Assembly: GCF_013488225.1 (NCBI RefSeq)
Contig: NZ_CP041241.1
Span: forward strand, 62,001-126,000
Source: Sinorhizobium mexicanum
Lineage (GTDB): Bacteria > Pseudomonadota > Alphaproteobacteria > Rhizobiales > Rhizobiaceae
Length of the DNA stretch: 64,000 nucleotides
Reading direction: 5' to 3'
Both the position numbers and the translations under genes were made by a program. A model generated the notes under the pieces. It worked only from the letters and a program-made list of their open reading frames with translations, ran no database searches and was not told where the DNA came from. Shown here piece after piece: positions 45,103-63,910 of this stretch. Position 1 is the stretch's first letter, and every line of letters begins with the position of its first letter.

Positions 45103-46104
45103 TTACCGGCCGATTGCTTCTATCTCCACGATCAAGGACTGCTCGACAGGAATTCCTTCCTTGAGGAGGGATTGCCTGAGCGCCTGGCGACGACGGCCGG
45201 GAAGCCGCGCGCCTGGTGCATCCGAGACCATGTCGGCCATGGCCGCGAAGCGTTCGAGGGTGCCGCTGCCGAACGCCGTGGGATCGATGCAGACAATCAA
45301 CTGGCCGACCCCGGGAGGCGCACCCTTGTCGTCGAAGAACGACGTTGCTTCGTAGGCGTAGTTGGCGCCGGTCAGACCAGCGGCAAGCAACTCGACCATC
45401 AACGCCAGCGCCGTGCCCTTGGCATCTCCGACCGGCGCCATGGTGCCCGCAAGTGCCGCTTTCGGGTCGGTGGTTGGCCGGCCATCCGCGTCGAAAGCCC
45501 AGCCTGGTGGAATAGCCTCGTCCTTCTGGTTGGCGGCCATGATCTTGCCGCGCGCCACCTTCGACAGCGAGATGTCGACGACGAGCGGATCCGCCCCGGC
45601 GATCGGTGCGGCGAAAGCGACAGGATTGGTGCCGAACAACGGGCGGTTGGAGCCCCAGGGCGCCATCGCGCCCGGCGCGTTGGCGAACATCAGGGCGACG
45701 AGCCCGTTCCTGGCGTAACGCTCGACGACTACGCCGGCGACGCCGCAATGGTGCGACCTGCGGAAACCGGCGAGCGCGACGCCTTGCGAGCGGGCGCACT
45801 CGCTGAGCGGTTCAACCGCGAGATCGAGCGCCGGGAAGGCAAAGCCGTTGGCGGCGTCCACGGCAAGGAGGGCAGGACGAGGCTTTTCAACGACCGGCGT
45901 CGCGAAGCCGTCGACCTTTCCGGCCTTGGCCTGTGCGGCATAGGCAGCGACACGGCGCAGGCCGTGACCGCCCTGGCCCGCCAGTTCTGCCTCGACCAGT
46001 GCGTCGGCGACCGACGCCGCGCTCTTCTCCGAAGTGCGCGAGCGTACAAGCGCACCCACAATGAGCGTATGGACCTCGCGAACATCAAGCGTAACGGAGC
46101 TCAT
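45103..46104 (-). CDS. comC: (R)-3-sulfolactate dehydrogenase, malate/L-lactate dehydrogenase family
   Basis: This 333-residue member of the LDH2/MDH2 family has RSHHCGVAGVVVERYARNGLVALMFANAP, the NAD(P)-binding GTNPVAFAAPI and DISLSKVARGKI, and GANYAYEATSFFDDKGAPPGVGQ. In known sulfolactate degraders ComC with SlcC interconverts (S)- and (R)-sulfolactate through sulfopyruvate, giving the isomer that SuyAB cleaves. ATG 46104 overlaps the slcC stop (ATGA) and has GGAGAGAA upstream; a longer frame to 46494 is antisense or out-of-frame DNA within slcC. Alone it could be a malate or ureidoglycolate dehydrogenase, but the operon context decides. Confidence 0.88.
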   Translation of the reverse strand: MSSVTLDVREVHTLIVGALVRSRTSEKSAASVADALVEAELAGQGGHGLRRVAAYAAQAKAGKVDGFATPVVEKPRPALLAVDAANGFAFPALDLAVEPLSECARSQGVALAGFRRSHHCGVAGVVVERYARNGLVALMFANAPGAMAPWGSNRPLFGTNPVAFAAPIAGADPLVVDISLSKVARGKIMAANQKDEAIPPGWAFDADGRPTTDPKAALAGTMAPVGDAKGTALALMVELLAAGLTGANYAYEATSFFDDKGAPPGVGQLIVCIDPTAFGSGTLERFAAMADMVSDAPGARLPGRRRQALRQSLLKEGIPVEQSLIVEIEAIGR

Positions 46105-47033
46105 CGTGTTCTCTCCAGTTCGGCCAGCACCTTCTCGGCGATGACGCTGCTGACACGGACGTTCGATTCGTCGGTAACGCCAGCGATATGCGGCGTCAGG
46201 AGGAGATTGGGAATTCCGACGAACTTTGCACCGGCTTCGGCCGTGAGGGGCTCGACCTCGAATACGTCGAGGGCGGCCCCGCCGAGCTTGCCGGCCCTGA
46301 GGGCGTCGGCAAGTGCCTGCTCGTCTACGACTCCCCCGCGTGCCGCGTTGATGAGGACGGCGCCGGTCTTCATTCCGGCGATCTGCGCCGCGCCGATCAT
46401 CTTCGCCGTGGCGGGCGTCAGGGGAACATGGAGGCTCACCACGTCGGCGACTTCCAACAGTCCGTCCAGCGACATGTTGCGCGCCGACTGCCATGCGGGA
46501 TTGTCCGCTGGCAGATGCGGATCATGGGCGACGATCTGCATGCCCATCGCCTGCGCCCGCCAGGCGACCTCGCGGGCAATTGCGCCGAAGCCGACAAGCC
46601 CCATGGTGCGGCCGGCGAGTTCGCGGCCGATAAGTGCCTGGCGCGGCCAGGAGCCGGAGGCAACGGCTGCGGTCGAGAGCCATGCGCCACGCAGGAGCAT
46701 GAGGGCGCCCGTCATTACGTATTCGGCCACCGACAGATCGTTGGCTCCGGTCGCCGGATGGACGACGATGTTGCGGCGTCGGCACTCGTCGAGGTCGATA
46801 TTGTCCAGCCCGACGCCCAGCCTGCCGACGCAGCGCAGATGCGGCCCGTGGTCGAGCAGGCTTGCGTTCACGCGGGTGCGGTTGCGCACGATGAGTGCGA
46901 CGGCGTCGGCAAGTTCGACCTGCAGACGGTCGGGGTTATCAACCAGCGACGGATCGTAAGTCACGGAATATCGCTGCCTGAGGTTATCAAGCGCCGCTTC
47001 GTCCATGAATTCGGATATGACGATTTCTGCCAA
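46101..47033 (-). CDS. slcC: (S)-sulfolactate dehydrogenase, D-isomer 2-hydroxyacid dehydrogenase family
   Basis: This 310-residue protein has the NAD motif LVGFGAIAREVAWRAQAMG, RVGRLGVGLDNIDL-type and INAARGGVVDEQALADAL signatures, and the catalytic His region LLTPHIAGVTDES. The start VISEFMDEAAL is what I recall of SlcC. It oxidises (S)-sulfolactate to sulfopyruvate with NAD. It starts with TTG 47033 (GAGGA upstream, inside the end of the exporter gene) and is coupled to comC. The same operon carries suyAB. Confidence 0.88.
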   Translation of the reverse strand: MAEIVISEFMDEAALDNLRQRYSVTYDPSLVDNPDRLQVELADAVALIVRNRTRVNASLLDHGPHLRCVGRLGVGLDNIDLDECRRRNIVVHPATGANDLSVAEYVMTGALMLLRGAWLSTAAVASGSWPRQALIGRELAGRTMGLVGFGAIAREVAWRAQAMGMQIVAHDPHLPADNPAWQSARNMSLDGLLEVADVVSLHVPLTPATAKMIGAAQIAGMKTGAVLINAARGGVVDEQALADALRAGKLGGAALDVFEVEPLTAEAGAKFVGIPNLLLTPHIAGVTDESNVRVSSVIAEKVLAELERTR

Positions 47034-47036
47034 GGT

Positions 47037-48059
47037 CTAGTTCCTCATGATGAGTTCAAAGCTGATGACAAGGGTCATCAGGAGAATGGTCGCACCGATC
47101 GGAACCGCCAAGGCGGCCCAGCCCATCCTCAGTGTACCGGAAATGGAGGTGCGGATGCCGATCGCGGCTACGGCCGTGGCGAGACACCAGTTTGAGAGCG
47201 CGATCGAGACGTCGCGCAGTGCGGTCGGCACGAAGCCGGACGAATTGACCACTACCAGCACGGCAAAGGCGACCGCGAAAGGGGGCAGAAGCCACGGCAG
47301 CCGTCCTTCCGTACTCGCGCGCGATCGCATCGTGAGCGCTATGCCGAGGACTGTCGGCAGAAGAAGGGCCACGCGAAAGAGCTTCACGATCGTCGCGGTG
47401 TCGCCGGCCTCCTCGGATACCGCGTAGCCGGCGCCGACGACCTGGGCGACGTCGTGGATCGTCGCGCCGAGGAATATCCCGGTCTGGCGATCATCGAGAC
47501 CGAGGAAGTGTGCAATGACCGGGTAGGCGAGCATCGCGACGGTCGAGAGCGTCGTGACCGTCACGATGACGAAGGCCGTTTCCCGGTCCTTGTTCGGTGA
47601 GGCGGGCAGTGTCGACGAGATGGCCAGTGCGGCGGAAGCGCCGCAAATGCCTGTCGCGCCGCCTGCGAGTAAACCCAAGGTGGACGGCAGCCCGAAAAGC
47701 CTCGCAAGTGCGAGGCCGCTCGCGATCGAGACTGCCGTGCCACTGGCCACGAGCAGCAAGGTATCGGAGCCGAGGCTCGCAACCTGCATGACCGAGATCT
47801 TCAGTCCGAGAAGAGCGATACCGACCTGCAGCAGAGGCCGCGAGGCGAAGGCGAGCCCCGCGCGCAACTGCTCATCGCCGGAAGCCCCATTGAGCGCGAT
47901 GCCGATCAGCAATGCAAAAGGCATGACCGGCGCGCCGACGGCCTGGGCCACGAAGGTGGCCGCCGCCGCGACGGTCAGCGCGAGAAACAACCCCGGCGCG
48001 GGCGTGGACAGCGCCTTCAGCCATCCACGCCCCGCCATCGGCCGAGTTTCGACGTTCAT
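47037..48059 (-). CDS. suyZ: UPF0324 (YeiH) family membrane protein, putative sulfate/sulfite exporter
   Basis: This 340-residue integral membrane protein has about ten hydrophobic segments and the family motifs LLQVGIALLGLKISV, LAGGATGICGASAALAISS and HDVAQVVGAGYAVSEEAG. The family (putative sulfate exporter, TC 2.A.98) includes SuyZ of sulfonate degraders, thought to remove sulfate or sulfite formed after desulfonation. Its place between suyB and slcC supports that role here. The symbol rests on context. Confidence 0.82.
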   Translation of the reverse strand: MNVETRPMAGRGWLKALSTPAPGLFLALTVAAAATFVAQAVGAPVMPFALLIGIALNGASGDEQLRAGLAFASRPLLQVGIALLGLKISVMQVASLGSDTLLLVASGTAVSIASGLALARLFGLPSTLGLLAGGATGICGASAALAISSTLPASPNKDRETAFVIVTVTTLSTVAMLAYPVIAHFLGLDDRQTGIFLGATIHDVAQVVGAGYAVSEEAGDTATIVKLFRVALLLPTVLGIALTMRSRASTEGRLPWLLPPFAVAFAVLVVVNSSGFVPTALRDVSIALSNWCLATAVAAIGIRTSISGTLRMGWAALAVPIGATILLMTLVISFELIMRN

Positions 48060-48091
48060 GATAAAAGGCCTCGGTCGATTGGCTTCGGTTA

Positions 48092-49273
48092 TCAGGCGCT
48101 CCGGTAGAGTTTGGTCATCACAAATTCCCGGTGGCCGAGCGCCTCGGCAGCGGTGTGCCTGCCGTTGGCGGTGCGCAGGATGTTCTCGATCAGCGCGTCG
48201 CCCGCCTGATCGATCGTCATCTCGCGGCGCAGGATGCCGGACACGTCGACGTCGACGTGCTCGCCCATGGTGCGCACCGTGCGCGGGTTAGCGGTGATCT
48301 TGATGACCGGCACGATCGGGTTGCCGATGACGTTCCCCTGTCCGGTCGGGAAGGTGTGGATCACGTAGCCGCCCGCAGCCATAAGCGTGACGCATTCCGC
48401 AGCAGCGGAAGACGAATCCATGAAATAGAGGCCTTTGCCGGACCTTGGCGCCTCTGCCGGTTCGAGAATGTCGATATAGCGGGAGGTGCGGCCGATCTTC
48501 TCCAGATTGCCGAGCGCCTTTTCCTCGATCGTGCTGAGGCCGCCCTCGATATTGCCTTTGGTCGGCTGGCTTTCGGAGAGGTCGCTGTCCTTGTGGGCCT
48601 CGATCACGTCTTCCTGGTAAGCCTTCCACATCTTGTACCAGCGCTCGCCGACCTCGGCATTGATGGCACGCTCCTTGCAGATGTGTTCGGCGCCGGTGAT
48701 TTCGGAGGTCTCGCCGAAGCAGCCGTAGATGCCTTCCGGCAACAGCTTGTCATACATGTTGCCGACGGTCGGGCAGGAGCCGAGACCCGTCGTGGTGTCG
48801 CTCTCGCCGCACTTGGTCGAGACCCACAGCTCCGAGACCGAGCACTCCTCGCGCTGCAACTCGGTGGCGTAGTGGACGAACTCCTTGGCCTTCCGGCTTG
48901 CGTCCATGATGGTCTTGAGGTCGCCATTCTGCTCGATCGAGAAACCGGCGACCGGTTTGCCGGTTTCCGCGATGCCGTCGACGATCCGCTTCGTCCAGCC
49001 GGGTTCGATGCCGATGACGATGACTGCCGCCACGTTGGGGTTCGCGCCGGTTCCGATCATGGTGCGGAAATGCAAATCGAGATCGGCGCCGAACTGCAGA
49101 CGACCGTAGGCATGCGGCAAGGCCAGCGTGCCCTTGATGTTGTTGGCCACGGCCTCGCAGGCGGCGTTGGAGATGTCATCAACCGGCAGGATCACGACAT
49201 GGTTGCGCACGCCGACGCGGCCGTTGTCGCGGCGATAGCCCTTGAAGGTGAGGTTGGAGTAGTTTGAAGCCAT
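48092..49273 (-). CDS. suyB: (R)-3-sulfolactate sulfo-lyase beta subunit
   Basis: SuyB with SuyA splits (R)-3-sulfolactate into pyruvate and sulfite. The 393-residue protein is of the UxaA (altronate dehydratase) C-terminal family: [56 protein letters not shown] (iron-binding cysteines) and [32 protein letters not shown] split altronate dehydratase is the alternative, but separate SuyA and SuyB with slcC, comC and the exporter point to sulfolactate. It lies eight bases after suyA. Confidence 0.92.
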
Positions 49274-49281
49274 GATCGGAC

Positions 49282-49569
49282 CTACCAGCGCTTGGTCTTG
49301 AGATTGTGGACATGAACGTGTCCGCCCTTGGCGACGTCGGCGATGATTCGGCCGATGTCCTCGCCGTACTTGATCGCCGTATCGCCGGCCTTGAGATCGG
49401 TCAGTGCCACCTTGTGGCCGATCGGCACGTCTTCGTTGACCTTCAGGTTAAAGCTCGAATTGTCGGCCGTTACGACGCAGGTCATTTCCGTGCCGGCTTT
49501 CAGGCCCTCGATGACGACGACACCGACGTTGTCGTGTGTCTCGTGCACCAGCAGTTGCGGTACGCTCAC
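49282..49569 (-). CDS. suyA: (R)-3-sulfolactate sulfo-lyase alpha subunit
   Basis: This 95-residue SAF-domain protein (small subunit) reads [21 protein letters not shown] through [23 protein letters not shown] and ends with [12 protein letters not shown], which matches the SuyA sequences I remember. It starts with GTG 49569 behind a strong AAGGAGGAAA. It heads the suyA-suyB-suyZ-slcC-comC operon, with a motif-bearing promoter just upstream. Confidence 0.93.
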
Positions 49570-49590
49570 GCTTTCCTCCTTGGTTCAGAA

Positions 49591-49632
49591 TTCTTATATA
49601 AGACATAAGATACGAAACTCTGGCGTTGTCAA
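49591..49632 (-). promoter_or_regulatory. suyA promoter and putative GntR operator (site A)
   Basis: On the minus strand TTGACA (49632-49627) is followed after 16-17 bases by TCTTAT as a possible -10. The -10 lies inside a 22-base element (49591-49612) containing CTTATGTCTTATATAAG. The same 22 bases occur exactly at 52246-52267. The 12-base palindrome TCTTATATAAGA lies within it. The element sits between suyA and the divergent GntR gene, so it may control both. Confidence 0.7.
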
Positions 49633-49677
49633 TCAAACTTCGCTATAAGGGTGCAGGAAAATTGGAGGCGAAGATCA

Positions 49678-50409
49678 ATGGACGTGAGCGCGGAAACCAG
49701 CTTGGGCTTTCGTCCACTCTATCTGCAGGTACGGGAGGAGATTACCCGGCAGCTTGCGAGCGGGCGCTGGCAACCCGGCACGATGCTGCCAAGCGAGCAG
49801 GAGCTTGCGCGTGAACTCGGCGTCAGCCAGGGCACGGTCCGCAAGGCACTCGATGCGATGACCGCCGAACGCATTCTCGTTCGCCGGCAGGGCAGGGGAA
49901 CGTTCGTCGCCGAATATGAGGAGAGCCGGATTCTTTTCCAGTTCTTCCGGCTCTATCCCGATTCGGGCGAGCGGCTGTTTCCCATATCGAAGGTGCTGAA
50001 CCTGTCGTCCGCAACGCCGAACCCGCGTGAGCGCGAGGCGCTCGGCCTCGATGACAAGGCCACGGTCTGGCGTATATCTCGCTTGCGCTATCACGGCTCG
50101 GAACTGATGCTGCGCGAAACCCTGTCGCTGCCGGGCCAGATTTTTCAGGGCCTGTCGGAGACGGAGGAGATCCCCAACAACGTCTATCGGCTCTATTCGC
50201 AACGCTGGGGCATCACCGTCACCCGCATATCAGAGAAGCTGAAGGCCGTTTCGGCCGACGAAGTCGACCGTGCCGCACTGAACTGCGCCGTTGGCGCGCC
50301 CCTGCTGGAAATCAGGCGCATCGCCTTCGACCTGCACAAGCGGCCGGTCGAATATCGCGAATCTCGCTGTCAGACCGAAACCATGCACTACGCGTCCGAT
50401 CTGAGCTGA
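49678..50409 (+). CDS. GntR family (HutC/UTRA) regulator, probable sulfonate-pathway regulator
   Basis: This 243-residue protein has a winged helix at about 10-75 (LYLQVREEITRQLASGRWQPGTMLPSEQELARELGVSQGTVRKALDAM, RRQGRGTFVAE) and a UTRA ligand domain at about 90-235 (ATVWRISRLRYHGSELMLRETLSLP, NCAVGAPLLEIRRIAFDLHKRPVEYRESRC). ATG 49678 follows GGAGG at 49664-49668. It is divergent from suyA across a promoter that carries the repeated operator, and is the best candidate to bind the three sites. The ligand is likely a sulfosugar or sulfolactate intermediate. Confidence 0.88.
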   Translation: MDVSAETSLGFRPLYLQVREEITRQLASGRWQPGTMLPSEQELARELGVSQGTVRKALDAMTAERILVRRQGRGTFVAEYEESRILFQFFRLYPDSGERLFPISKVLNLSSATPNPREREALGLDDKATVWRISRLRYHGSELMLRETLSLPGQIFQGLSETEEIPNNVYRLYSQRWGITVTRISEKLKAVSADEVDRAALNCAVGAPLLEIRRIAFDLHKRPVEYRESRCQTETMHYASDLS

Positions 50410-50410
50410 A

Positions 50411-50450
50411 CTATAGCGCCGCAGGTCTTATAAGACGCGCGGCGCTGTAG
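50411..50450. repeat. Mosaic repeat family C, second palindrome
   Basis: Arms CTATAGCGCC / GGCGCTGTAG around GTCTTATAAGAC lie between the converging GntR and lactonase genes and might act as a bidirectional terminator. Confidence 0.7.
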
Positions 50451-50477
50451 CGAATCCCTGCATGTCTTGTGTCCCAA

Positions 50478-51389
50478 TTACGCGCCGGTCCTGAAGGGTG
50501 TCGCCGGCAACCCTTCGATGCCGAGGTCGAGCGCGAGCAGCGCCCCCGCGAGAGGCTCCGCAGCGTGGGCTTCGGGCGCCAGTCCCTCGCTGATCGAGGT
50601 GACGAAGAGGGTCTTCAGGTCCGATCCGCCGAAAGCGACTTTCGAGGGACGTGCGACGGGCAACGGCACGGCAAGATCGAGCTTGCCTTCCGGCGTAAAG
50701 CGCAGCAGTTGCGATCCGCGGACGGCGGCCACCCAATAGCAGCCCGCGGCATCGACGGCGGCACCATCGGGACGTCCGCCATCCTCTGGGAAGATGACGA
50801 ATGTCTCCTTTCCTTCCGTCCTGCCGGTGTCCGGATCGTAGCGCGCCCGCCAGACCTGGTGCGGCGTCAGGGTCGTGTCGGCCCAGTAGACGGTGCGTCC
50901 ATCCGGGCTGAATGCGATGCCGTTCGGGACGGTAAGGCCGCGCTCGATCGTGGCGGTGCCGCCGTCGCTCCCCACCAGATGGATGTTGCCGACAGGACTG
51001 AGGCCGGTCTGCGGCAGCGGCATGGTTCCCACCCACAGCCGTCCCTGGCGATCGCACGCGGCGTCGTTGGTCCGGTTGCCCGAGCCGGCGGGCTCGAGCT
51101 CAGTGAAAACGCTGGCCGTTCCGTTCGCCGGATCGAATTTCAGGACGCTGTCGTGCTGGCCGACGAGCCACGTCCCGTCGTCGGCAGGCTGGACGAAGCC
51201 GGTCATTTCCGGAAAATCCCAGCTTTCCGTCTCTCCGCTTTCCGGCCGTGTCAGCAGCACCTTGCAGCCGGCGATATCGACCCACAGCAACGCCCCTTCC
51301 TGCTCGTCCCAGATCGCGCTTTCCCCGATCCGCGCGGTATAGGAGCCGAGCCGCTCGATCCTTGGCCTCAGCACGCGCATGTCAGCCAC
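50478..51389 (-). CDS. SMP-30/gluconolactonase family lactonase
   Basis: This 303-residue six-bladed propeller has the metal-site segments RIGESAIWDEQEGALLWVDI (Glu), GNRTNDAACDRQGRLWVGTM (Asn) and GRPDGAAVDAAGCYWVAA (Asp). It hydrolyses sugar lactones. In P. putida sulfo-ED the 6-deoxy-6-sulfogluconolactonase is of this family, and here it shares an operon with an HpcH/HpaI aldolase. It starts with GTG 51389 (overlapping the aldolase end); ATG 51380 is possible. Gluconate-type lactones remain an alternative substrate. Confidence 0.9.
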   Translation of the reverse strand: MADMRVLRPRIERLGSYTARIGESAIWDEQEGALLWVDIAGCKVLLTRPESGETESWDFPEMTGFVQPADDGTWLVGQHDSVLKFDPANGTASVFTELEPAGSGNRTNDAACDRQGRLWVGTMPLPQTGLSPVGNIHLVGSDGGTATIERGLTVPNGIAFSPDGRTVYWADTTLTPHQVWRARYDPDTGRTEGKETFVIFPEDGGRPDGAAVDAAGCYWVAAVRGSQLLRFTPEGKLDLAVPLPVARPSKVAFGGSDLKTLFVTSISEGLAPEAHAAEPLAGALLALDLGIEGLPATPFRTGA

Positions 51390-52152
51390 CGCTCCTCAGG
51401 TTCTTGAGCTCGCTTCGGGCGTTCGACATCATCAGACCGAGATCCGATCCGGAAGCGACCCAACTGAAGCCGTATCCGAGATAGTCGCGCGCTTGCGCCG
51501 AGCCACCGGCCAGGATGCCGCTCGGCATGCCGAGCTTCGAGCAGCGCGCGGCAGCATAGGCAAGCACCGTCTGCACTTCAGGGTGACCAGGCTGGCCGAT
51601 GAAACCCATGTCCGCGGAGAGATCTCCCGGGCCGATGAAGATGCAATCGACCCCCGGGATGGCGGCGATCTCCTCAAGATTCGCGACCGCCTTCTTCGTC
51701 TCCAACTGGAGAATGACGCAGATCTCGTTCGCTGCGTTGCGATGATAGTCGGCGATGGCGCCGTAGCGCGTGGCGCGGCTCATCCCCGCGAAGCCGCGAA
51801 CGCCCTCCGGAGGGTAGCGCGTGGCGGCAACCGCGCGGCGCGCCTCGTCGGCGTTCTGTATATAGGGGAACATCAGCGTCTGGGCGCCGAAATCGAGGAG
51901 CTGCTTCACCGTTACAGTGTCGTTCCACTGAAGCCGCACGACCGGGCTCGCTGGCGACCCGGCCGCTGCCTGAAGCAGGCCGAAGACGCGCGGCGCGTCG
52001 TTGGGGGCGTGTTCCATGTCAAGGACGACGAAGTCGTAGCCCGCAAAGCCCAGCGCCTCGGCCGCCATGGCGCTTCCGCTCATGGACCACACGCCGATCA
52101 TCGGCGGTGTGCGCTTGAGATTCCTTTTGAATGCATTGAGCGGCATCTCCAC
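51382..52152 (-). CDS. HpcH/HpaI family aldolase
   Basis: This 256-residue class II aldolase has the family motifs VVLDMEHAP (metal/base), VRLQWNDTVTVKQLLDFGAQTLMFPYIQNADEARRAV and CIFIGPGDLSADMGFIGQPGHPEV. These enzymes cleave 2-keto-3-deoxy acids to pyruvate plus an aldehyde. In the sulfo-ED pathway the KDSG aldolase, which gives pyruvate and 3-sulfolactaldehyde, is of this family. It starts with GTG 52152 behind AGGAG and is divergent from the ABC operon over a shared promoter region with the operator. 2-Keto-3-deoxy-rhamnonate or -glucarate are other possible substrates. Confidence 0.88.
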   Translation of the reverse strand: MEMPLNAFKRNLKRTPPMIGVWSMSGSAMAAEALGFAGYDFVVLDMEHAPNDAPRVFGLLQAAAGSPASPVVRLQWNDTVTVKQLLDFGAQTLMFPYIQNADEARRAVAATRYPPEGVRGFAGMSRATRYGAIADYHRNAANEICVILQLETKKAVANLEEIAAIPGVDCIFIGPGDLSADMGFIGQPGHPEVQTVLAYAAARCSKLGMPSGILAGGSAQARDYLGYGFSWVASGSDLGLMMSNARSELKNLRSGG

Positions 52153-52267: not shown

Positions 52268-52315
52268 CGCGAGTTCACGGGAGGTGAGAGTTCGCGGATG
52301 AAAGGGAGGGTTTTG

Positions 52316-57305: not shown

Positions 57306-57440
57306 CGCGCGCCTCGCGCTTCTTCCGCGATCGGTACGGTCGCCAAACGACGCCCGCGCCCGGCCTGCGAAAAACCCGGGCGCGTCTGGTGATGCAGTTG
57401 CGGACCTTGCCGGTCCTCTCATGAAATCAGGAGCATAGTT

Positions 57441-58607
57441 ATGTCTCGCATAGCCAGCATTGAAACATTCCGCGTTCCCCCGCGGTGGATCTTCGTCCGG
57501 GTGACGACGGATGACGGTCTCACCGGTTGGGGCGAAGCCATCATTCCGAAGCGCGCCCGCGCCGTGGTTGCGGCGATCGAGGACATGGCCGCCAATCTCA
57601 AGGGCGTCGATGTTTCGCGGATCGAGGACATAGCGCAGCGCCTCCGCCGCGGGGCCTTTTTCCGCCACGGGCCGATCTTGGCAACGGCGGCGGCCGGCAT
57701 CGAACAGGCATTGTGGGACATCAAGGGCCAGCGGGCCGGCATGCCCGTCTACGAGTTCCTCGGCGGCGCCGTGCGCGATCACGTCCGTGCCTATGCCTGG
57801 ATCGGCGGCGACAGTCCGAATGATATCGTCGAGCATGCGCGCAAGCGGATGGAAGAGGGCTTCACCGCAGTCAAGATGAACGCCACACCGGCGTTGGGGC
57901 ATATCGGCCAGCGGAACCTCATCGACGCCGCCGCCGCGCGCATGGGCGCGTTGCGCGATGCCTTCGGCAACAAGCTCGATATCGCGCTCGATCTCCATGG
58001 GCGCGTGCACCGCGCCGCCCTGAAGCCGCTGCTGGCGGAGCTCGAGCAGTTCCACCCGATGTGGATCGAGGAGGCGACGACCCCGGAGAACGAGGAAACG
58101 CTGAAGATGCTGGCGAGCGCCGCGCGCTCCATTCCGGTCGCGACCGGCGAGCGGCTCAGTTCGCGCTGGGAGTTCAAGCGGGTGCTCGATACCGGTGCGA
58201 TCGACATCATCCAGCCGGACGTGTCGATCACCGGACTGTTCGAGCTCGAGAAGATTGCCCGCATGGCCGAGGTCTACGACGTGGCGGTCGCTCCGCACTG
58301 CCCGAACGGGCCGATATCGCTTGCGGCGTCGCTGCAAGTGGGCTTCTGCTGCCCGAACATCGTCATCCAGGAACAGAGCCTCGGGCTGCACTATCACGCC
58401 GGGTTTGCCGGACTGCCCAAAGCCGACCTGCTCGATTATCTGAAGGACACCAAGCCGCTGACCACGGCTGACGGCGTCTTTGCCATCAACGATGCCGCCG
58501 GCCTCGGCATCGTGCTGGACGAGGAAGGAATTGTTGCGAAGCAGCAGGACTGGCGCCTGCCCGATGCCGACTGGACCCATCCCGACGGCACCTATGCGGA
58601 ATGGTGA
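57441..58607 (+). CDS. Enolase-superfamily sugar-acid dehydratase (D-galactonate dehydratase-like)
   Basis: This 388-residue mandelate-racemase-group protein aligns by eye with E. coli DgoD: PPRWIFVRVTTDDGLTGWGEA, IEQALWDIKGQRAGMPVYEFLGG, and metal ligands Asp in DLHGRVH, Glu in WIEEATT and Glu in ATGERLSSR. The catalytic His is in APHCPNGP and the end is GTYAEW. It dehydrates aldonates to 2-keto-3-deoxy acids. In a sulfo-ED reading it would act on 6-deoxy-6-sulfogluconate, in place of the IlvD/Edd-type enzyme known from P. putida; galactonate is the family-based default. Confidence 0.88.
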   Translation: MSRIASIETFRVPPRWIFVRVTTDDGLTGWGEAIIPKRARAVVAAIEDMAANLKGVDVSRIEDIAQRLRRGAFFRHGPILATAAAGIEQALWDIKGQRAGMPVYEFLGGAVRDHVRAYAWIGGDSPNDIVEHARKRMEEGFTAVKMNATPALGHIGQRNLIDAAAARMGALRDAFGNKLDIALDLHGRVHRAALKPLLAELEQFHPMWIEEATTPENEETLKMLASAARSIPVATGERLSSRWEFKRVLDTGAIDIIQPDVSITGLFELEKIARMAEVYDVAVAPHCPNGPISLAASLQVGFCCPNIVIQEQSLGLHYHAGFAGLPKADLLDYLKDTKPLTTADGVFAINDAAGLGIVLDEEGIVAKQQDWRLPDADWTHPDGTYAEW

Positions 58608-59496
58608 CGCACTTGTAAGGCTCTCGGCGGGGGACCTGGTTCTTACTCTCTCGCCGCATATCGGCGGTTCGGTCGCGGGCTTCGCGAAATCCGGGGCCGA
58701 CCTGATGCGTCGGACCCCGCCTGAGGCACTGGAGAAGGGCGTTGTGCGTCAAACGAGCGCCTTCCCGCTCGTGCCTTACTCCAATCGCATCGCGCATGGG
58801 CGCTTTTCTTTTGGGGGCGAGCACCACCTCGCCCGCAATGCCGGCGAGGAGCACGCCCTGCACGGCAATGGCTGGCAGCTTCCATGGTCCGTCGCCGACG
58901 CCTCGACTTCGTCGTGCAGGCTTGTCCTCGAGCACAGTCCCTTCGGCTGCGGGCCGGGAGGTTCGGACGGCTGGCCATTTGCCTTTCGCGCTACGCAGAG
59001 CTTTACGCTCGAACCGCGAAGCCTGCGCGTGGCGCTTTCGCTCGAAAACGTGGATACGCGGCCGATGCCAGCCGGGCTCGGCTGGCATCCGTTTTTCCCT
59101 CTGCGGCCCGATACGGTCCTTGCCTTCAGCGCATCCGGCATGTGGATGACCGGACCGGACCATCTGCCGACGGAGCACGTTGCAGTGACTTCCGACCGTG
59201 CCTTCGATGGAGGACGTCGGGTCGAATGCGCGACGCTGAACAATTGCTTCACCGGCTGGAGGCGGCGCGCCAGGATAGAACTTGGCGGCGGATTGCCCAC
59301 TTTGCGCTTTGCGGCGGACGAGCTGTTTTCAATGGCGATCGTCTATACGCCTGCGGGGCAGTCCTTTTTCGCTTTCGAACCGGTCAGCCATATGCCGGAT
59401 GCCGTCAAGCGCATGGACTCTACGGTGGATCACGGCCTCCGCATTCTGGCGCCTGGAGAGACGATCGCAGGGCATATCCTGCTGGCCGTGGGCTGA
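58594..59496 (+). CDS. Aldose 1-epimerase family protein (mutarotase)
   Basis: This 300-residue beta-sandwich protein has the substrate residues in PLVPYSNRIAHGRFSFGG, EHALHGNGWQLPW (His), LGWHPFFPL (His) and the C-terminal FAFEPVSHMPDAV (Glu). It interconverts sugar anomers for the dehydrogenase. ATG 58594 overlaps the dehydratase end by 14 bases. The known sulfo-ED gene cluster also includes a mutarotase-like protein. Confidence 0.9.
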   Translation: MRNGDALVRLSAGDLVLTLSPHIGGSVAGFAKSGADLMRRTPPEALEKGVVRQTSAFPLVPYSNRIAHGRFSFGGEHHLARNAGEEHALHGNGWQLPWSVADASTSSCRLVLEHSPFGCGPGGSDGWPFAFRATQSFTLEPRSLRVALSLENVDTRPMPAGLGWHPFFPLRPDTVLAFSASGMWMTGPDHLPTEHVAVTSDRAFDGGRRVECATLNNCFTGWRRRARIELGGGLPTLRFAADELFSMAIVYTPAGQSFFAFEPVSHMPDAVKRMDSTVDHGLRILAPGETIAGHILLAVG

Positions 59497-59633
59497 CCCC
59501 GTGTTCGCCACTGCTTCGTCGCCCGCGCGGTGAAGTCTTCCTTCCATGACAACTTCTCTCCCCTTCCGACCGGCCTCTTGCGATTTCGGCGGCAGCGAGG
59601 TCGTGCAGGATGCCGTTTTACCGTTAATCCCTG

Positions 59634-59665
59634 TTGACTCCTCTAACTTATAACTTATAGAAGAC
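59634..59665 (+). promoter_or_regulatory. Promoter and putative GntR operator (site C)
   Basis: TTGACT (59634-59639) and TATAGA (59656-59661), 16 bases apart, are overlapped by 59644-59665, which matches sites A and B at 17 of 22 positions without gaps (core ACTTATAACTTATAGAAGA). It precedes the sulfonate-type importer operon. Confidence 0.6.
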
Positions 59666-59742
59666 TATCGATGCTAAATTCTATCGCCAGGCTGCGAGGG
59701 AGGGACTCTGTCGGCCGGCGGTCACTGGGAGGGAGAGAAAAC

Positions 59743-60753
59743 ATGCATCGACGTGATTTTCTGGCGGGCGCCGCAGCCTTGTGCGGCGCAGGTCTGGTTC
59801 GCCCGGCGCGAGCCGAAACGGGTTCCGTTTCCGTTGCGCGTGGTTTTGCCATCCCGCACCTGCCGGTGATGGTGATGGAACACCAGTCGCTGTTCCGGAA
59901 GCATCTTGATGCGGCTGGGCTCGCAAGCGTGGCCACAGAATGGGTGACGCTTGGCTCCGGCTCGGTGATGAACGATGCCCTGATTTCCGGCAATCTGTCT
60001 TTCGCCACCGGCGGACCGCCGCCCATGCTTACCCTGTGGTCGCGCACGAAAGGAACGCCGATGGAGGTGCGCGGCGTCTGCAATCAGGCGATCATGCCGA
60101 TGTATCTCAACACCAAGAATCCCGGCGTCCGCTCGATCGAGGATTTCACCGAGAAGGACCGCATCGCGGTCTCGGCGATCAAGGTCTCCATCCAGGCGAT
60201 CATCGTCCAGATGGCTGCCGCGCAGAAGTTCGGCATGGACGCTTATGACCGCCTCGACGAGCTGACGGTCGGAATGAACGCGGTAGACGCGACGACAGCC
60301 CTGCGGTCGGATCAGAGCCCCGTCACCGCCAATGTCAGCCTGCCGCCCTTCCAGTATCAGGAGCTGAAGCTGCCGAACATCCACAAGGTGCTGAGCTCTT
60401 ACGACGTGGTCGGCGAGCCGCATACCTTTTCAATGGTCTGGACCACCCGGCAATTCCAACAGCAGAACCCGGGTATCTACAAGGCCTTCCTCGCGGCGAT
60501 CACCGAGGCGACCGATCTGATCCGCAGCGATAAACCCAAGGCGGCGCAAATCTATCTCGACGTCACGGGCGCGAAGGATTCGCTTGAAGAGACCCTGGCG
60601 CTCCTCAACAACCCCGAAATCGAGTTCACCACGGTGCCGAAGGGAACGTTCCGGCTGGCGGAGTTCATGCATTCGATCGGAACGCTCGAAGCCGATGCGG
60701 AATCCTGGAAAGACTACTTCTTCGAGGATATCCATTCGCTTCCGGGAAGCTGA
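59743..60753 (+). CDS. ABC transporter substrate-binding protein (SsuA/NMT1 type)
   Basis: This 336-residue protein belongs to the nitrate/sulfonate/taurine-binding class. HRRDFLAGAAALCGAGLVRPARA is a twin-arginine-like signal. Family segments are VARGFAIPHLPVMVMEHQSLFRKHLDAAG, LGSGSVMNDALISGNLSFATGGPPPML and VWTTRQFQQQNPGIYKAFLAAI. ATG 59743 follows GGAGGGAG; the frame from 59671 is less likely. With the downstream ATPase and permease it forms a complete importer under site C, so a sulfonate such as sulfolactate or a related C3 acid is a reasonable ligand. Confidence 0.88.
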   Translation: MHRRDFLAGAAALCGAGLVRPARAETGSVSVARGFAIPHLPVMVMEHQSLFRKHLDAAGLASVATEWVTLGSGSVMNDALISGNLSFATGGPPPMLTLWSRTKGTPMEVRGVCNQAIMPMYLNTKNPGVRSIEDFTEKDRIAVSAIKVSIQAIIVQMAAAQKFGMDAYDRLDELTVGMNAVDATTALRSDQSPVTANVSLPPFQYQELKLPNIHKVLSSYDVVGEPHTFSMVWTTRQFQQQNPGIYKAFLAAITEATDLIRSDKPKAAQIYLDVTGAKDSLEETLALLNNPEIEFTTVPKGTFRLAEFMHSIGTLEADAESWKDYFFEDIHSLPGS

Positions 60754-60765
60754 GGGGGTGTTGGG

Positions 60766-61539
60766 ATGACTGCACCTCTCCTCGACGTCAAGGGCGTCAC
60801 GCTCCAGTACAGGACTCAGGAACACGTCGTCACCGCGACCTATCGGGTCGATTTCGACGTGTCCCGGTCCGACCGCTTCATCCTGCTTGGTCCGTCGGGA
60901 TGCGGCAAGTCGACCCTTCTCAAGGCCGTGGGCGGCTACCTCAAGCCGACCGAAGGCAAGATCAGCCTGAACGGACGGCAGATCGTGGCACCGGGGCCAG
61001 ACCGGATGATGGTCTTTCAGGAGTTCGATCAGCTGCTCCCGTGGAAGACGGTCAAAGAAAATGTCGTCTTCGCGTTGGAGGCCTCGCGCAAGCTGCGCGG
61101 CGCGGCGGCGCGGGAGAAAGCCGCCGATGCCATCGCCAAGGTCGGACTCGCACGGTTCGCCGACAGCTATCCGCATACGCTCTCGGGCGGCATGAAGCAG
61201 CGGGTGGCAATCGCCCGCGGGATGGCGATGGAACCCGATATTCTGCTGATGGACGAGCCTTTCGCCGCGCTCGACGCGCTTACCCGGCGCAAGATGCAAG
61301 ATGAACTGTTGGCCCTGTGGGAGGGGACGAAGTTCACGGTCCTCTTCGTAACGCACTCGATTGCCGAGGCGATCAAGGTCGGCAACAGGATCCTGCTGCT
61401 TTCACCTCACCCCGGCCGCGTGAAAGCCCGTATCGACGATATTCCCTACGGCATGGCGCCATCCGCCGCTGCCGCGCTCGAAAAAGAGATCCATAACATG
61501 CTCTTCGCCGAAGAGATCGAGGAGGTCGAGCATGTCTGA
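60766..61539 (+). CDS. ABC transporter ATP-binding protein (SsuB/TauB type)
   Basis: This 257-residue single-domain ATPase has Walker A GPSGCGKST, the Q-loop VFQEFDQLLPWKTV, signature LSGGMKQRVAIARGMAM, Walker B ILLMDEPFAALD and VTHSIAEAIKV. These features and the length fit the sulfonate/nitrate branch. Its stop overlaps the permease start. Confidence 0.93.
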   Translation: MTAPLLDVKGVTLQYRTQEHVVTATYRVDFDVSRSDRFILLGPSGCGKSTLLKAVGGYLKPTEGKISLNGRQIVAPGPDRMMVFQEFDQLLPWKTVKENVVFALEASRKLRGAAAREKAADAIAKVGLARFADSYPHTLSGGMKQRVAIARGMAMEPDILLMDEPFAALDALTRRKMQDELLALWEGTKFTVLFVTHSIAEAIKVGNRILLLSPHPGRVKARIDDIPYGMAPSAAAALEKEIHNMLFAEEIEEVEHV

Positions 61540-62398
61540 CATGACCCCAGCTCCTAGTATCGCCGTCGCCCGAATGGAGGGAGACGCGCACGGTGTCGTC
61601 GAGAAGCCGCTCACAGCCTTTGACAAGATCTACAATCTGAATTGGCTGCGAAAGCTGGTCATGCTGATCGTGCTTGCAGTCATCTGGGAAGTCTATGCGC
61701 GGTGGCTGAACAACGCCCTGCTGTTCCCGACATTTGCCGAGACCGTTGAGGCTCTTGTCGAAGGCGCCGCCAGCGGCATCCTGGTCATTCGCGCCTGGGC
61801 CTCGATCCAGATGCTGCTCGCGGGCTATGTCATCGGCATCATGCTTGCCGGCGTCCTGACTTTTCTTGCGATCGGTACGCGGATCGGCTCCGACTTTCTC
61901 GAGACGATGACGTCGATCTTCAATCCGTTGCCGGCAATTGCCCTGCTGCCGCTCGCGATGACCTGGTTTGGACTGGGATCGGGCAGTCTCATCTTCGTCC
62001 TCGTCCATTCGGTTCTCTGGACCGTGGCGCTCAACACGCATTCCGGCTTTCGCGCGGTATCGAGCACGCTCCGCATGGTGGGGCAGAACTGCAGTCTCTC
62101 CGGGCCGCGGCTTGTCTGCAAGATCCTGATTCCGGCCGCGCTGCCGAGCATCCTCACCGGGCTCAAGATCGGGTGGGCCTTTGCCTGGCGGACGCTGATC
62201 GCGGCCGAACTCGTGTTCGGCGTCAGCTCCGGCCGAGGAGGGCTCGGCTGGTTCATCTACGAGCGCAAGAACCTGCTCGACATCCCCGATGTCTTCGCGG
62301 GGCTGCTGACTGTGATCATCATCGGTCTCGCCATTGAAAACCTGGTCTTCCGCAAGATCGAGGAGAAGACGGTGCGCCGGTGGGGCATGCAGCAATAG
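61532..62398 (+). CDS. ABC transporter permease (SsuC/TauC type)
   Basis: This 288-residue single permease, expected to form a homodimer, has six or so membrane helices and the sulfonate/nitrate family segment FNPLPAIALLPLAMTWFGLGSGSLIFVLVHSVLWTVALNTHSGF. Its coupling loop is LVCKILIPAALPSILTGLKIGWAFAWRTLIAAEL. It precedes the aldehyde dehydrogenase by 45 bases on the same strand. Confidence 0.93.
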   Translation: MSDMTPAPSIAVARMEGDAHGVVEKPLTAFDKIYNLNWLRKLVMLIVLAVIWEVYARWLNNALLFPTFAETVEALVEGAASGILVIRAWASIQMLLAGYVIGIMLAGVLTFLAIGTRIGSDFLETMTSIFNPLPAIALLPLAMTWFGLGSGSLIFVLVHSVLWTVALNTHSGFRAVSSTLRMVGQNCSLSGPRLVCKILIPAALPSILTGLKIGWAFAWRTLIAAELVFGVSSGRGGLGWFIYERKNLLDIPDVFAGLLTVIIIGLAIENLVFRKIEEKTVRRWGMQQ

Positions 62399-62443
62399 CG
62401 AGGCCCACGGGCCGTTAATCAACATACATTTGAGGAGACCGCG

Positions 62444-63910
62444 ATGCTTCAAAAGAGCAGCCATTTCATGCGCGAGGCCAACCTGATCGATGGCAAGTGG
62501 GTTCAGGCCGATGCCGGCGCGACTATCGACGTAATCAATCCTGCGACAGGGCAGAAGATCGGCGTTGTGCCGAAGTCCGGGAGGGTGGAGACCAGGCGCG
62601 CGATAGAGGCGGCGGATAAGGCTTTTCAGACCTTCAGCAAGACGACGGCACTCGAGCGCTCGAAGCTGCTGCGCAAGCTGCATGACGCGCTCATGGAAAA
62701 TCAGGAAGCGCTGGCCTATCTGCTGACCCTCGAGCAGGGGAAATCACTCGCCGAGGCCCGGGGCGAGATCGGCGCTTCGGCCGCCTACGTTCTCTGGTTT
62801 GCCGAAGAGGCGCGGCGCACCTACGGCGACACCGTGCCGAGCCCCTGGGCCGACCGCCGTATCCTCGTGACGAAGGAACCGGTGGGCGTGATTGCGGCGA
62901 TCACGCCGTGGAATTTCCCATCGTCCATGCTGGCGCGCAAGATCGGCCCGGCAATCGCCGCCGGCTGCACCGCCGTGGTCAAGCCCGCCTCTCAGACGCC
63001 CTATTCGGGTCTTGCCTGGGGCGTTCTCTGCGAGGAAGTCGGCATCCCGCCCGGCGTCGTCAATATAGTGACGGGCTCGGCGTCGGAGATCGGCGACGAG
63101 CTCTGCGAGAACCCCGCGGTCAAGAAGATCACCTTCACCGGCTCGACCGAGGTCGGCAAGCTCCTCCTCACAAAGGCGGCGTCGACCGTGAAGAAGGTTT
63201 CGATGGAGCTTGGCGGCAACGCGCCGTTCCTCGTCTTCGACGATGCCGACCTGGACCGTGCCGTCGAGGGCGCGATGGTCGCGAAATATCGCAACTCCGG
63301 GCAGACCTGCGTATGCACCAACCGCTTCTTCGTGCAGAGCGGCGTCTACGACCGCTTCGTCGAGAAGCTCGCTGAGGCCTGCGACAAGCTGAAGGTCGGA
63401 TCGGGGATCGAGGAAGGCGTGCAGCAAGGCCCGCTGATCGACGGGAACGCGGTGGAAAAGGTCGAGGAATTGATCGCGGATGCCACCTCGAAGGGCGGAA
63501 AGGTCATCACCGGCGGCACGCGGCACGAGCTCGGCGGCACATTTTTCCGGCCGACTGTGATCTCGGAAGCGACGACGGACATGCGCTTCATGAAGGAGGA
63601 GATCTTCGGCCCCGTCGCCCCTGTCTTCCGCTTCGAAAAGGAGGAAGAGGCCGTCGCGCTCGCCAACGACACCGAATATGGGCTCGCCTGCTATTTCTAC
63701 ACCAGCGACCTCGCTCGGGCGTTCCGGGTTTCAGAGGGCCTGAAATACGGCATGGTGGGCGTCAACGAGGGGCTCATCACCACACCGGAAGCTCCCTTCG
63801 GCGGCGTCAAGGAGTCCGGCCTCGGTCGCGAAGGCGGGCACCAGGGCATCGAAGATTATCTCGACACAAAATATGTTTGCATCGGCGGTCTTACAGCGCC
63901 GCGCGTCTGA
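62444..63910 (+). CDS. Aldehyde dehydrogenase (succinate-semialdehyde type), candidate 3-sulfolactaldehyde dehydrogenase
   Basis: This 488-residue NAD(P)-dependent ALDH has ITPWNFPSSMLARKIGPAIAAGC, the Glu motif SMELGGNAPFLVF and catalytic Cys in NSGQTCVCTNRFFV, with GabD-type TFFRPTV and APFGGVKESGLGREGG. Sulfolactaldehyde dehydrogenase of the sulfo-ED pathway in P. putida is a GabD-like enzyme, and the adjacent genes fit. GAGGAG lies six bases before ATG 62444. The last residues (TAPRV) and the stop are encoded by the family C repeat that ends the window. Succinate semialdehyde is the default alternative substrate. Confidence 0.9.
   Translation: MLQKSSHFMREANLIDGKWVQADAGATIDVINPATGQKIGVVPKSGRVETRRAIEAADKAFQTFSKTTALERSKLLRKLHDALMENQEALAYLLTLEQGKSLAEARGEIGASAAYVLWFAEEARRTYGDTVPSPWADRRILVTKEPVGVIAAITPWNFPSSMLARKIGPAIAAGCTAVVKPASQTPYSGLAWGVLCEEVGIPPGVVNIVTGSASEIGDELCENPAVKKITFTGSTEVGKLLLTKAASTVKKVSMELGGNAPFLVFDDADLDRAVEGAMVAKYRNSGQTCVCTNRFFVQSGVYDRFVEKLAEACDKLKVGSGIEEGVQQGPLIDGNAVEKVEELIADATSKGGKVITGGTRHELGGTFFRPTVISEATTDMRFMKEEIFGPVAPVFRFEKEEEAVALANDTEYGLACYFYTSDLARAFRVSEGLKYGMVGVNEGLITTPEAPFGGVKESGLGREGGHQGIEDYLDTKYVCIGGLTAPRV

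What the first reader, a model, noticed from the sequence alone, without database searches (positions are those of the whole stretch)
45103..63910. One locus encodes a candidate sulfo-Entner-Doudoroff pathway joined to full sulfolactate mineralisation
Seen: suyA-suyB-UPF0324-slcC-comC; GntR/HutC; SMP-30 lactonase; HpcH/HpaI aldolase; ABC importer; SDR; enolase-type dehydratase; aldose epimerase; sulfonate-type importer; GabD-like ALDH. Known: sulfo-ED (P. putida SQ1, also reported in a Rhizobium leguminosarum strain) uses a mutarotase, SDR, SMP-30-type lactonase, dehydratase, HpcH/HpaI-type aldolase and GabD-like SLA dehydrogenase and ends with excreted (S)-sulfolactate. SlcC, ComC and SuyAB turn sulfolactate into pyruvate and sulfite. 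Inferred: this strain could take sulfoquinovose to two pyruvates plus sulfite alone. No sulfoquinovosidase is in the window, so free SQ or its glycosides would need an enzyme encoded elsewhere.
Basis: partly seen in the sequence, partly recalled or inferred. Interest (0 to 1): 0.92.

Follow-up and report, generated by a model that had tools for sequence, protein, structure and literature searches.

The report
Sulfofucose-to-sulfite degradation gene cluster
A soil bacterium carries one gene cluster, apparently under one switch, that should break a rare sulfur-containing sugar down to two pyruvates plus sulfite; this kind of pathway was published in 2025, and this copy supplies a likely candidate for the one enzyme that study could not find.

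Summary
The locus matches the tandem sulfofucolytic Entner-Doudoroff plus sulfolactate-sulfolyase pathway shown in Paracoccus wurundjeri (PMC12421959), which also predicts it in Sinorhizobium mexicanum: SDR, SMP-30 lactonase, galactonate-type dehydratase, HpcH aldolase, SlcC, ComC, SuyAB. The locus has no ILVD/EDD dehydratase and the genome no GH31. The dehydratase is a rare type (8 of 394 family genomes), apart from the genome's own DgoD; all 8 hosts have SuyB (75 of 386 others do).

Two things are not in that paper's main text. First, an identical 22-nt site lies in both divergent regions (suyA|gntR and aldolase|importer), with a weaker copy before the second importer-ALDH operon; an approximate genome search finds only these three. 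One GntR/UTRA regulon probably joins both halves. Second, the GabD-like ALDH is a candidate for the missing sulfolactaldehyde dehydrogenase: orthologs directly follow comC in gntR|suyA-suyB-slcC-comC-ALDH operons of 13 other genomes in 8 genera. A full tandem cluster, with a different aldolase family, also occurs in the actinomycete Haloactinopolyspora. All substrates here are inferred.

The parts
45103..46098 (-). comC-like sulfolactate dehydrogenase, Ldh_2 family
   Evidence: PF02615 324 bits; NF040650 L-sulfolactate dehydrogenase 183 bits, below its cut-off of 500; next to slcC/suyAB in relatives
46101..47033 (-). slcC-like sulfolactate dehydrogenase, D-2-hydroxyacid dehydrogenase family
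   Evidence: PF02826/PF00389; synteny
47037..48059 (-). UPF0324/YeiH-type (PF03601) putative sulfite/sulfate exporter
   Evidence: PF03601 219 bits, cut-off 24.5; TIGR00698 123 bits, below its cut-off of 232.6
48092..49273 (-). suyB, large subunit of (R)-sulfolactate sulfo-lyase
   Evidence: PF20629 and PF04295; 69% to the hpsN/hpsO-linked UxaA-family protein of Cupriavidus pinatubonensis; conserved beside suyA
49282..49569 (-). suyA, small subunit of sulfolactate sulfo-lyase (GTG start, 95 aa)
   Evidence: conserved next to suyB
49591..49612 (.). predicted GntR operator 1 (core TCTTATATAAGA 49592-49603) between divergent suyA and gntR
   Evidence: core in the same gap in 18 of 18 relatives scanned, 17 exact and 1 with one mismatch
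49678..50409 (+). GntR/UTRA (HutC-type) regulator
   Evidence: PF00392 and PF07702; ATG at 49678 read from the sequence
50478..51389 (-). SfcD-like SMP-30 sulfogalactonolactonase
   Evidence: PF08450 247 bits; overlaps the aldolase gene by 8 bases
51382..52152 (-). SfcE-like HpcH/HpaI aldolase (2-keto-3-deoxy-6-sulfogalactonate cleavage)
   Evidence: PF03328 155 bits
52246..52267 (.). predicted GntR operator 2, the exact 22-nt copy of operator 1 on the other strand, between divergent aldolase and importer operons
   Evidence: core also in L009, L129, L131; absent within 2 mismatches from L133, L135, L137, L140
52298..53590 (+). sugar ABC importer, substrate-binding protein (putative sulfofucose binder)
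   Evidence: PF01547 126 bits; syntenic in the sfc clusters read
53590..54507 (+). sugar ABC importer, permease 1
   Evidence: PF00528 46.5 bits; synteny
54504..55370 (+). sugar ABC importer, permease 2
   Evidence: PF00528 65.5 bits; synteny
55363..56214 (+). SfcH-like SDR, sulfofucose 1-dehydrogenase
   Evidence: PF13561 207 bits; synteny
56211..57305 (+). sugar ABC importer, ATPase
   Evidence: PF00005, PF08402, PF17912
57441..58607 (+). SfcF-like enolase-superfamily dehydratase (6-deoxy-6-sulfogalactonate dehydratase)
   Evidence: PF13378/PF02746; NF010624 over cut-off; type apart from DgoD
58594..59496 (+). aldose 1-epimerase, putative sulfofucose mutarotase
   Evidence: PF01263 113 bits; ATG at 58594 read
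59647..59664 (+). weak predicted operator 3 (3 mismatches of 18; 2 of the 12-nt core), upstream of the second importer-ALDH operon
   Evidence: also in L009 with 2 mismatches to the core
59743..60753 (+). SsuA/TauA-like substrate-binding protein (putative sulfonate importer); ORF could also start at 59671
   Evidence: PF13379 28.3 bits, cut-off 24.7; TIGR01728 55 bits, below its cut-off of 163.5
60766..61539 (+). ABC ATPase, nitrate/taurine type
   Evidence: PF00005, no cut-off reached
61532..62398 (+). ABC permease, SsuC/TauC type
   Evidence: PF00528, no cut-off reached
62444..63910 (+). GabD-like aldehyde dehydrogenase, candidate sulfolactaldehyde dehydrogenase
   Evidence: PF00171 576 bits; clade apart from canonical GabD; orthologs directly follow comC in sulfolactate operons of 13 other genomes
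39431..43006 (+). cysJ-cysI, NADPH sulfite reductase beside the cluster (adjoining; possible fate of part of the sulfite; no operator seen)
   Evidence: TIGR01931 710 bits, cut-off 668; NF010029 762 bits, cut-off 457

Best explanation
The locus is a tandem sulfofucolytic Entner-Doudoroff plus sulfolactate-sulfolyase cluster under one GntR/UTRA regulator. Proposed order: the sugar ABC importer takes up sulfofucose (6-deoxy-6-sulfo-D-galactose); the epimerase interconverts its anomers; the SDR oxidises it to the lactone; the SMP-30 enzyme opens the lactone; the galactonate-type dehydratase makes 2-keto-3-deoxy-6-sulfogalactonate; the HpcH aldolase cleaves it to pyruvate and sulfolactaldehyde; the GabD-like ALDH oxidises sulfolactaldehyde to (S)-sulfolactate; SlcC/ComC epimerise it via sulfopyruvate; SuyAB releases sulfite and a second pyruvate; the UPF0324 protein exports sulfite. 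The four sugar steps were shown for P. wurundjeri enzymes (published). For this locus every substrate is inferred from family, synteny and shared operator sites. The ALDH step is my assignment, at about 0.7 on its own.
For: Same four families plus SuyAB/SlcC/ComC as the reconstituted pathway, and no PF00920 gene in the locus. SfcF-type dehydratase at 63% or more in 8 of 394 family genomes (own included); the other matches listed are at 50% or less; the own genome has a separate DgoD-like gene at 47%. Residues nearly fixed in SfcF-type and replaced in DgoD-type, including N289 for L, W208 for F, P36 for E, and a three-residue insert. SuyB (1e-120) in 8 of 8 SfcF-type and 75 of 386 other family genomes, Fisher p 3e-6. 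Identical 22-nt sites at suyA|gntR and aldolase|importer; an 18-nt search with up to 3 mismatches over 7.14 Mb gives these two plus the weak third, all inside the locus. The core is at gntR|suyA in 18 of 18 relatives scanned (17 exact, 1 with one mismatch) although GntR identity to the window falls to 55%. ALDH orthologs at 72-87% directly follow comC in gntR|suyA-suyB-slcC-comC-ALDH order in 13 other genomes of 8 genera; ALDHs of another type follow suyB in Haloactinopolyspora and Rhodococcus.
Against: No biochemical or expression data for this strain. Sequences of the characterised P. wurundjeri enzymes could not be reached, so identity to them is unmeasured (name no Paracoccus among 120 listed each). 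The ALDH's orthologs are common, in 156 of 394 family genomes; having one is not associated with having SuyB (37 of 83 against 119 of 311, p 0.31); of 36 genomes where both were placed, 22 have them on different contigs or over 15 kb apart, among them the sfc hosts Chelativorans (G227), G033 and G196; sfc hosts G241 and G252 show none at 1e-150. In three of four other orthologs checked the gene lies between an AEC-type transporter and an aldose epimerase. The ALDH does not group with the proven R. leguminosarum enzyme, and the proposed sulfonate-binding arginines are present in E. coli GabD too. G027, an sfc host, has the sulfolactate operon without this ALDH. The third operator site is weak: a reversed-pattern control gave 2 matches genome-wide. 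The co-occurrence tests ignore relatedness.
Confidence: 0.79

Rival explanations
1. Sulfoquinovose sulfo-ED pathway joined to sulfolactate mineralisation.
For: Three of four ED enzyme families and the GabD-like ALDH are shared with sulfo-ED (PMC12421959). Seven PF00920 proteins are encoded elsewhere in the genome.
Against: No PF00920 dehydratase in the locus; the dehydratase is galactonate-type; no GH31 in the genome; the ALDH does not group with R. leguminosarum GabD; strain Merri with the same families did not grow on SQ (PMC12421959). Other sulfoquinovosidase families (such as GH188) were not searched.
Confidence: 0.08
2. The ED part is an ordinary D-galactose, D-fucose or other galacto-configured sugar pathway that merely lies beside a sulfolactate operon.
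For: The dehydratase passes the galactonate dehydratase cut-off; De Ley-Doudoroff-like order of steps; D-fucose would also give an aldehyde for a lactaldehyde-type ALDH (recalled).
Against: Exact shared operator with suyAB found nowhere else in the genome; SfcF-type hosts all have SuyB; a separate DgoD-like gene exists; no kinase among the locus genes; published activity of the same set of families on sulfofucose.
Confidence: 0.12
3. The ALDH and the SsuA-like importer are a separate module (for example succinate-semialdehyde or another sulfonate) and SLA is oxidised by a different enzyme, such as a chromosomal GabD paralog.
For: ALDH orthologs are widespread and presence alone is not associated with SuyB; other contexts exist; paralogs at 59, 57, 54 and 51% exist in the genome; the third operator is weak; here the ALDH is 13 kb from suyB.
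Against: The same ALDH type directly follows comC in sulfolactate operons of 13 other genomes; ALDHs of another type occupy a like place in actinomycetes; this ALDH is absent at 1e-225 from the 7 other same-genus genomes sampled, which fits arrival with the locus.
Confidence: 0.27

Closest known systems
Tandem sulfofucolytic-sulfolactate sulfolyase pathway of Paracoccus wurundjeri Merri (PMC12421959)
   Same: SDR, SMP-30, PF13378/PF02746 dehydratase, HpcH aldolase, sugar ABC importer, SlcC, ComC, SuyA, SuyB; no PF00920 dehydratase. The paper lists Sinorhizobium mexicanum ITTG R7 (SfcF A0A859QZ22) as a predicted host.
   Different: This locus adds a GabD-like ALDH, a SsuA-like importer, an aldose epimerase (the last also noted in some of their clusters) and a shared operator. 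The paper reports no GabD/SlaB in Merri; the words GntR and regulator do not occur in its main text. Its supplements were not available.
Sulfoglycolytic Entner-Doudoroff pathway (P. putida SQ1, R. leguminosarum SRDI565)
   Same: Order of chemical steps, and families of the dehydrogenase, lactonase, aldolase and ALDH
   Different: Dehydratase family, epimeric sugar at C4, no GH31 SQase, and sulfolactate is mineralised here, not excreted
SlcC/ComC-SuyAB sulfolactate degradation (Chromohalobacter, Paracoccus pantotrophus; named in PMC12421959)
   Same: suyAB, slcC, comC, and a putative exporter
   Different: Here under the same operator as a sugar-cleaving operon
De Ley-Doudoroff galactose catabolism
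   Same: Dehydrogenase, lactonase, galactonate-type dehydratase
   Different: No 2-keto-3-deoxygalactonate kinase in the locus; HpcH aldolase; dehydratase of a different type from the genome's own DgoD-like protein

Membership tests
Sulfofucolytic ED (sfc) pathway | SDR dehydrogenase (PF13561), SfcH | tested here: met
   window 55363-56214
Sulfofucolytic ED (sfc) pathway | SMP-30 lactonase (PF08450), SfcD | tested here: met
   window 50478-51389
Sulfofucolytic ED (sfc) pathway | PF13378/PF02746 dehydratase, SfcF, the signature of the pathway | tested here: met
   hosts of close relatives match names in the paper's Fig. 6 legend: Chelativorans petroleitrophicus, Hyphomicrobiales SCN18, Rhizobiales 65-79, Rhizobiaceae FW021_bin.52
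Sulfofucolytic ED (sfc) pathway | HpcH/HpaI aldolase (PF03328), SfcE | tested here: met
   window 51382-52152
Sulfofucolytic ED (sfc) pathway | Sequence identity to the characterised P. wurundjeri proteins | not tested
   Their sequences were not named among the 120 hits listed by each
Sulfofucolytic ED (sfc) pathway | Growth on and enzyme activity with sulfofucose | not testable with these tools
   -
SlcC/ComC-SuyAB mineralisation | suyA, suyB, slcC, comC together | tested here: met
   no NCBIfam cut-off reached
Sulfo-ED (sulfoquinovose) | PF00920 sulfogluconate dehydratase in the cluster | tested here: not met
   7 PF00920 places in the genome, none in the locus
Sulfo-ED (sulfoquinovose) | GH31 sulfoquinovosidase | tested here: not met
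   No match in the whole genome; the same search rings in 6 of 14 control genomes. GH188 not searched
SLA dehydrogenase (GabD/SlaB) | Catalytic Cys/Glu, oxyanion Asn and two Arg of R. leguminosarum GabD | tested here: inconclusive
   All present, but also in E. coli GabD, so they do not discriminate
De Ley-Doudoroff pathway | KDGal kinase in the cluster | tested here: not met
   None among the locus genes scanned

The most novel reading that the evidence does not exclude
A single GntR/UTRA regulator reading TCTTATATAAGA, originally the switch of the suyAB-slcC-comC(-ALDH) sulfolactate operon in this family, has captured a sulfofucose ED operon in the Sinorhizobium/Chelativorans branch. The GabD-like ALDH of that regulon is the sulfolactaldehyde dehydrogenase that the published sulfofucose pathway lacks. 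The same tandem pathway evolved in or travelled to Actinomycetota, with a DHDPS-family aldolase in place of HpcH.
Probability: 0.55. Interest if true: 0.63.

Novelty: new member of a known kind. Interest (0 to 1): 0.55.

Why it matters
It corrects the substrate from an abundant sulfosugar to a rare one, links sugar cleavage and C-S bond cleavage in one cell through a shared operator, and gives one testable gene for the acknowledged missing step of sulfofucose breakdown. The operator and the dehydratase residues offer handles for finding further clusters, including outside Proteobacteria.

Tried and rejected
Sulfoquinovose reading: not supported, on dehydratase family and absence of GH31. Active-site arginines as proof of an SLA dehydrogenase: rejected because canonical GabD has them. 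ALDH as a gene specific to sfc or SuyB genomes: rejected, 156 of 394 genomes have it and presence is not associated with SuyB; only position is informative. Horizontal arrival by base composition: no signal, 63.3% GC in the locus against 63.4% in window 1-45102. Operator 3 as proof on its own: not claimed, given 2 reversed-pattern control matches. Finding the Paracoccus SfcF by protein search: two searches, none named among 120 listed each, of 503 and 376 hits. Class-wide search: only the own genome of 385 reached 1e-118. PDB search for the SDR: no entry named sulfoquinovose dehydrogenase among the 60 listed of 400.

Limits of counts. A first co-occurrence test over hosts found gave SuyB in 12 of 14 at 55% identity or more and 4 of 36 below (p 1e-6); I drew that line after seeing the list, gave 50 of the 80 loci (L052 and L060-L088 left out), and the low group is mostly Paenibacillus and other Bacillota, so phylum confounds it. 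The within-family test replaced it. In one search, sequences at 55-59.5% identity were left out and the groups contain copies of the same proteins from different sources. In one search one ALDH row (L184) was dropped for an in-frame stop. In one search many flanking frames picked were antisense, so only the Pfam check of nine frames is used from it. For one search the ALDH place of G164 was not listed, so 36 of 37 genomes with both genes were placed. The 18 operator regions were chosen because they carry sfc genes or the ALDH: 17 of the 82 other SuyB-bearing family genomes plus Sinorhizobium sp. 6-70.

Full report
1. Observation. From strand and overlaps I infer these units: gntR, divergent from suyA-suyB-UPF0324-slcC-comC; lactonase-aldolase, divergent from SBP-permease-permease-SDR-ATPase-dehydratase-epimerase; and SBP-ATPase-permease-ALDH. 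The window lies at G000:C4:62001-126000 of a 7.14-Mb, 4-contig genome. The nearest named relative at the locus is Sinorhizobium sp. 6-70, colinear from metB-cysJI to the ALDH at 95-99.7% protein identity, so the strain is very probably a Sinorhizobium. That it is S. mexicanum ITTG R7, which the published survey lists, is a guess I did not test.

2. What is published. PMC12421959 (parts 1-4 of 9 read: abstract, introduction, results, discussion and the start of methods; passages; supplements not available) reports growth of Paracoccus wurundjeri on sulfofucose with release of sulfite, and stepwise in-vitro conversion by SfcH (SDR), SfcD (SMP-30), SfcF (PF13378/PF02746) and SfcE (HpcH), with SlcC/ComC and SuyAB proposed to follow. 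It states that the SLA dehydrogenase is unknown, that no GabD/SlaB homolog was found in Merri, and that Sinorhizobium mexicanum is among predicted hosts with SlcC, ComC, SuyA and SuyB. Searches for 'sulfofucose' (5 papers) and 'sulfofucolytic' (1 paper) listed no other paper on its breakdown, judged by titles and abstracts. The library holds only open-licence PMC papers. Other papers were seen as passages only: PMC10599462, PMC12133307, PMC12890257.

3. Why sulfofucose. The dehydratase is the discriminating family. It scores over the galactonate dehydratase cut-off yet is not the genome's DgoD-like protein, which lies at C4:575490 with 47% identity. Over 394 genomes of the family, 8 (own included) have a homolog at 63-100%, and the other matches listed at E 1e-100 or better are at 50% or less. 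In an alignment of SfcF-type sequences (63 at 70% or more, 71 at 59.5-70%) and 77 DgoD-type sequences, positions such as N289, S293, W208, T264, P36 and a G-L-P insert at 324-326 are nearly fixed in the first and replaced in the second. N289 follows an H-C-P motif that I recall as holding the catalytic histidine of this subgroup. SuyB (1e-120) is in all 8 SfcF-type genomes and in 75 of the 386 others (Fisher p 3e-6, relatedness ignored). The locus has no PF00920 enzyme and the genome no GH31.

4. One regulon. The two divergent intergenic regions share an identical 22-nt stretch, TATCTTATGTCTTATATAAGAA, with a perfect palindromic core. In the window the core has three matches at up to 2 mismatches, two of them exact, against a mean of 0.19 in shuffles, none of 100 reaching three. 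A search of the whole genome with the 18-nt form and up to 3 mismatches returns three places, all in this locus; the reversed-pattern control returns two. The third place lies about 80 bases upstream of the likely start of the SsuA-like gene and is kept in Sinorhizobium sp. 6-70, a near-identical relative; it is weak evidence alone. In relatives, the core sits between gntR and suyA in 18 of 18 regions scanned, 17 exact and one with one mismatch, where GntR identity to the window falls to 55%. Upstream of the ED operon the core is present in L009, L129 and L131 and absent within 2 mismatches from L133, L135, L137 and L140. The simplest reading is that this is the regulator of the sulfolactate operon and that the ED operon came under it in one branch. 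Binding is inferred.

5. The ALDH. Orthologs at 1e-225 are in 156 of 394 family genomes, nearly always one copy, and in none of the 7 other same-genus genomes sampled. They form a clade apart from canonical GabD and from the proven R. leguminosarum SLA dehydrogenase, with a loop NEGxITTxEAPFGG where E. coli GabD has NTGIISNEVAPFGG. The residues proposed for SLA binding (PMC10599462, passages) are conserved but not diagnostic. Presence alone is not associated with SuyB: 37 of 83 SuyB genomes have it, 119 of 311 others do (p 0.31). Position is: of 36 genomes in which both were placed, 14 (own included, at 13 kb) have them within 15 kb, the 13 others within 6.5 kb. All 13 were read: gntR|suyA-suyB-slcC-comC-ALDH, with small insertions, in G031, G032, G049, G062, G066, G068, G105, G131, G152, G177, G214, G235 and G288, eight genera by the tool's labels. 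In Rhodococcus koreensis and Haloactinopolyspora a different ALDH type (67% identical between them) directly follows suyB. Against this, 22 of the 36 have the two genes apart, and three of four other orthologs checked lie between an AEC-type transporter and an aldose epimerase. I put the SLA dehydrogenase assignment near 0.7.

6. Beyond Proteobacteria. Haloactinopolyspora alba carries suyA-suyB-ALDH-slcC-comC, a GntR/FCD regulator, SBP-permease-permease-SDR-ATPase-dehydratase (65%), a DHDPS-family protein and an SMP-30 protein in one run. The cited paper describes its hosts as Proteobacteria, and no word beginning 'actino' occurs in its main text. Five further non-alphaproteobacterial hosts of dehydratases at 56-61% identity (G785, G788-G791) have SuyB, but I saw it on the same contig as that dehydratase only in G790, 28 kb away; two others at 55-58% (G786, G787) have none. 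These more distant cases are not claimed as sfc clusters.

7. Sulfite. The UPF0324 protein is a likely exporter. A complete cysJI pair lies 2 kb beyond comC; it is the only close CysI in the genome, the next match being a distant one at 31% on C1. The window has no operator copy near it, so its link to the pathway is only positional.

8. Verdict. The kind is known since 2025. The added value is the candidate for the missing dehydrogenase, the shared operator, and the actinomycete cluster.

Noticed in passing
window 39431-43006 (+): cysJ-cysI, NADPH-dependent sulfite reductase over curated cut-offs, next to the sulfite-producing cluster on the same replicon; conserved in Sinorhizobium sp. 6-70.
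   Followed up: partly
L216:539-9129 (G000:C4:126038-134628), just past the window end, convergent with the ALDH: AraC and LacI regulators, sugar ABC importer and a GH2 enzyme strongly similar to beta-D-galactosidase 5euv over residues 305-1039 of a 1056-aa ORF whose first 300 residues resemble an ABC permease (26%): an odd permease-GH2 fused frame. A galactosidase-type enzyme beside a sulfo-galactose cluster is a remote candidate for a sulfofucosidase; more likely an ordinary beta-galactosidase module.
   Followed up: partly
L190 and L236 (G027:C15): G027, which has a 63% SfcF cluster, also encodes the closest relative in the tree of the R. leguminosarum SLA dehydrogenase, beside a sugar importer and an SDR: possible separate sulfo-ED cluster. 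Its sulfolactate operon lacks the window-type ALDH.
   Followed up: partly
L107 (Cereibacter sphaeroides plasmid): Sister of the window ALDH clade in an operon of sugar importer, zinc alcohol dehydrogenase, tartrate dehydrogenase, aldolase and sugar kinase; resembles the family list given for the EMP-like genes of P. wurundjeri cluster 2.
   Followed up: no
L191 (Methylobacterium radiotolerans plasmid): An ABC binding-protein gene about 45% identical to the window's SsuA-like protein lies about 10 kb from suyAB; a second binding-protein gene lies closer.
   Followed up: no
L223 (G000:C1:8000-20000): A GabD paralog (59%), an HpcH aldolase (43%) and a SuyA/SuyB-like UxaA pair (SuyB 32%) lie together: probably a sugar-acid locus, but an in-house rival context for such enzymes.
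   Followed up: no
window 16818-16913 (+): ARAGORN calls a selenocysteine tRNA.
   Followed up: no
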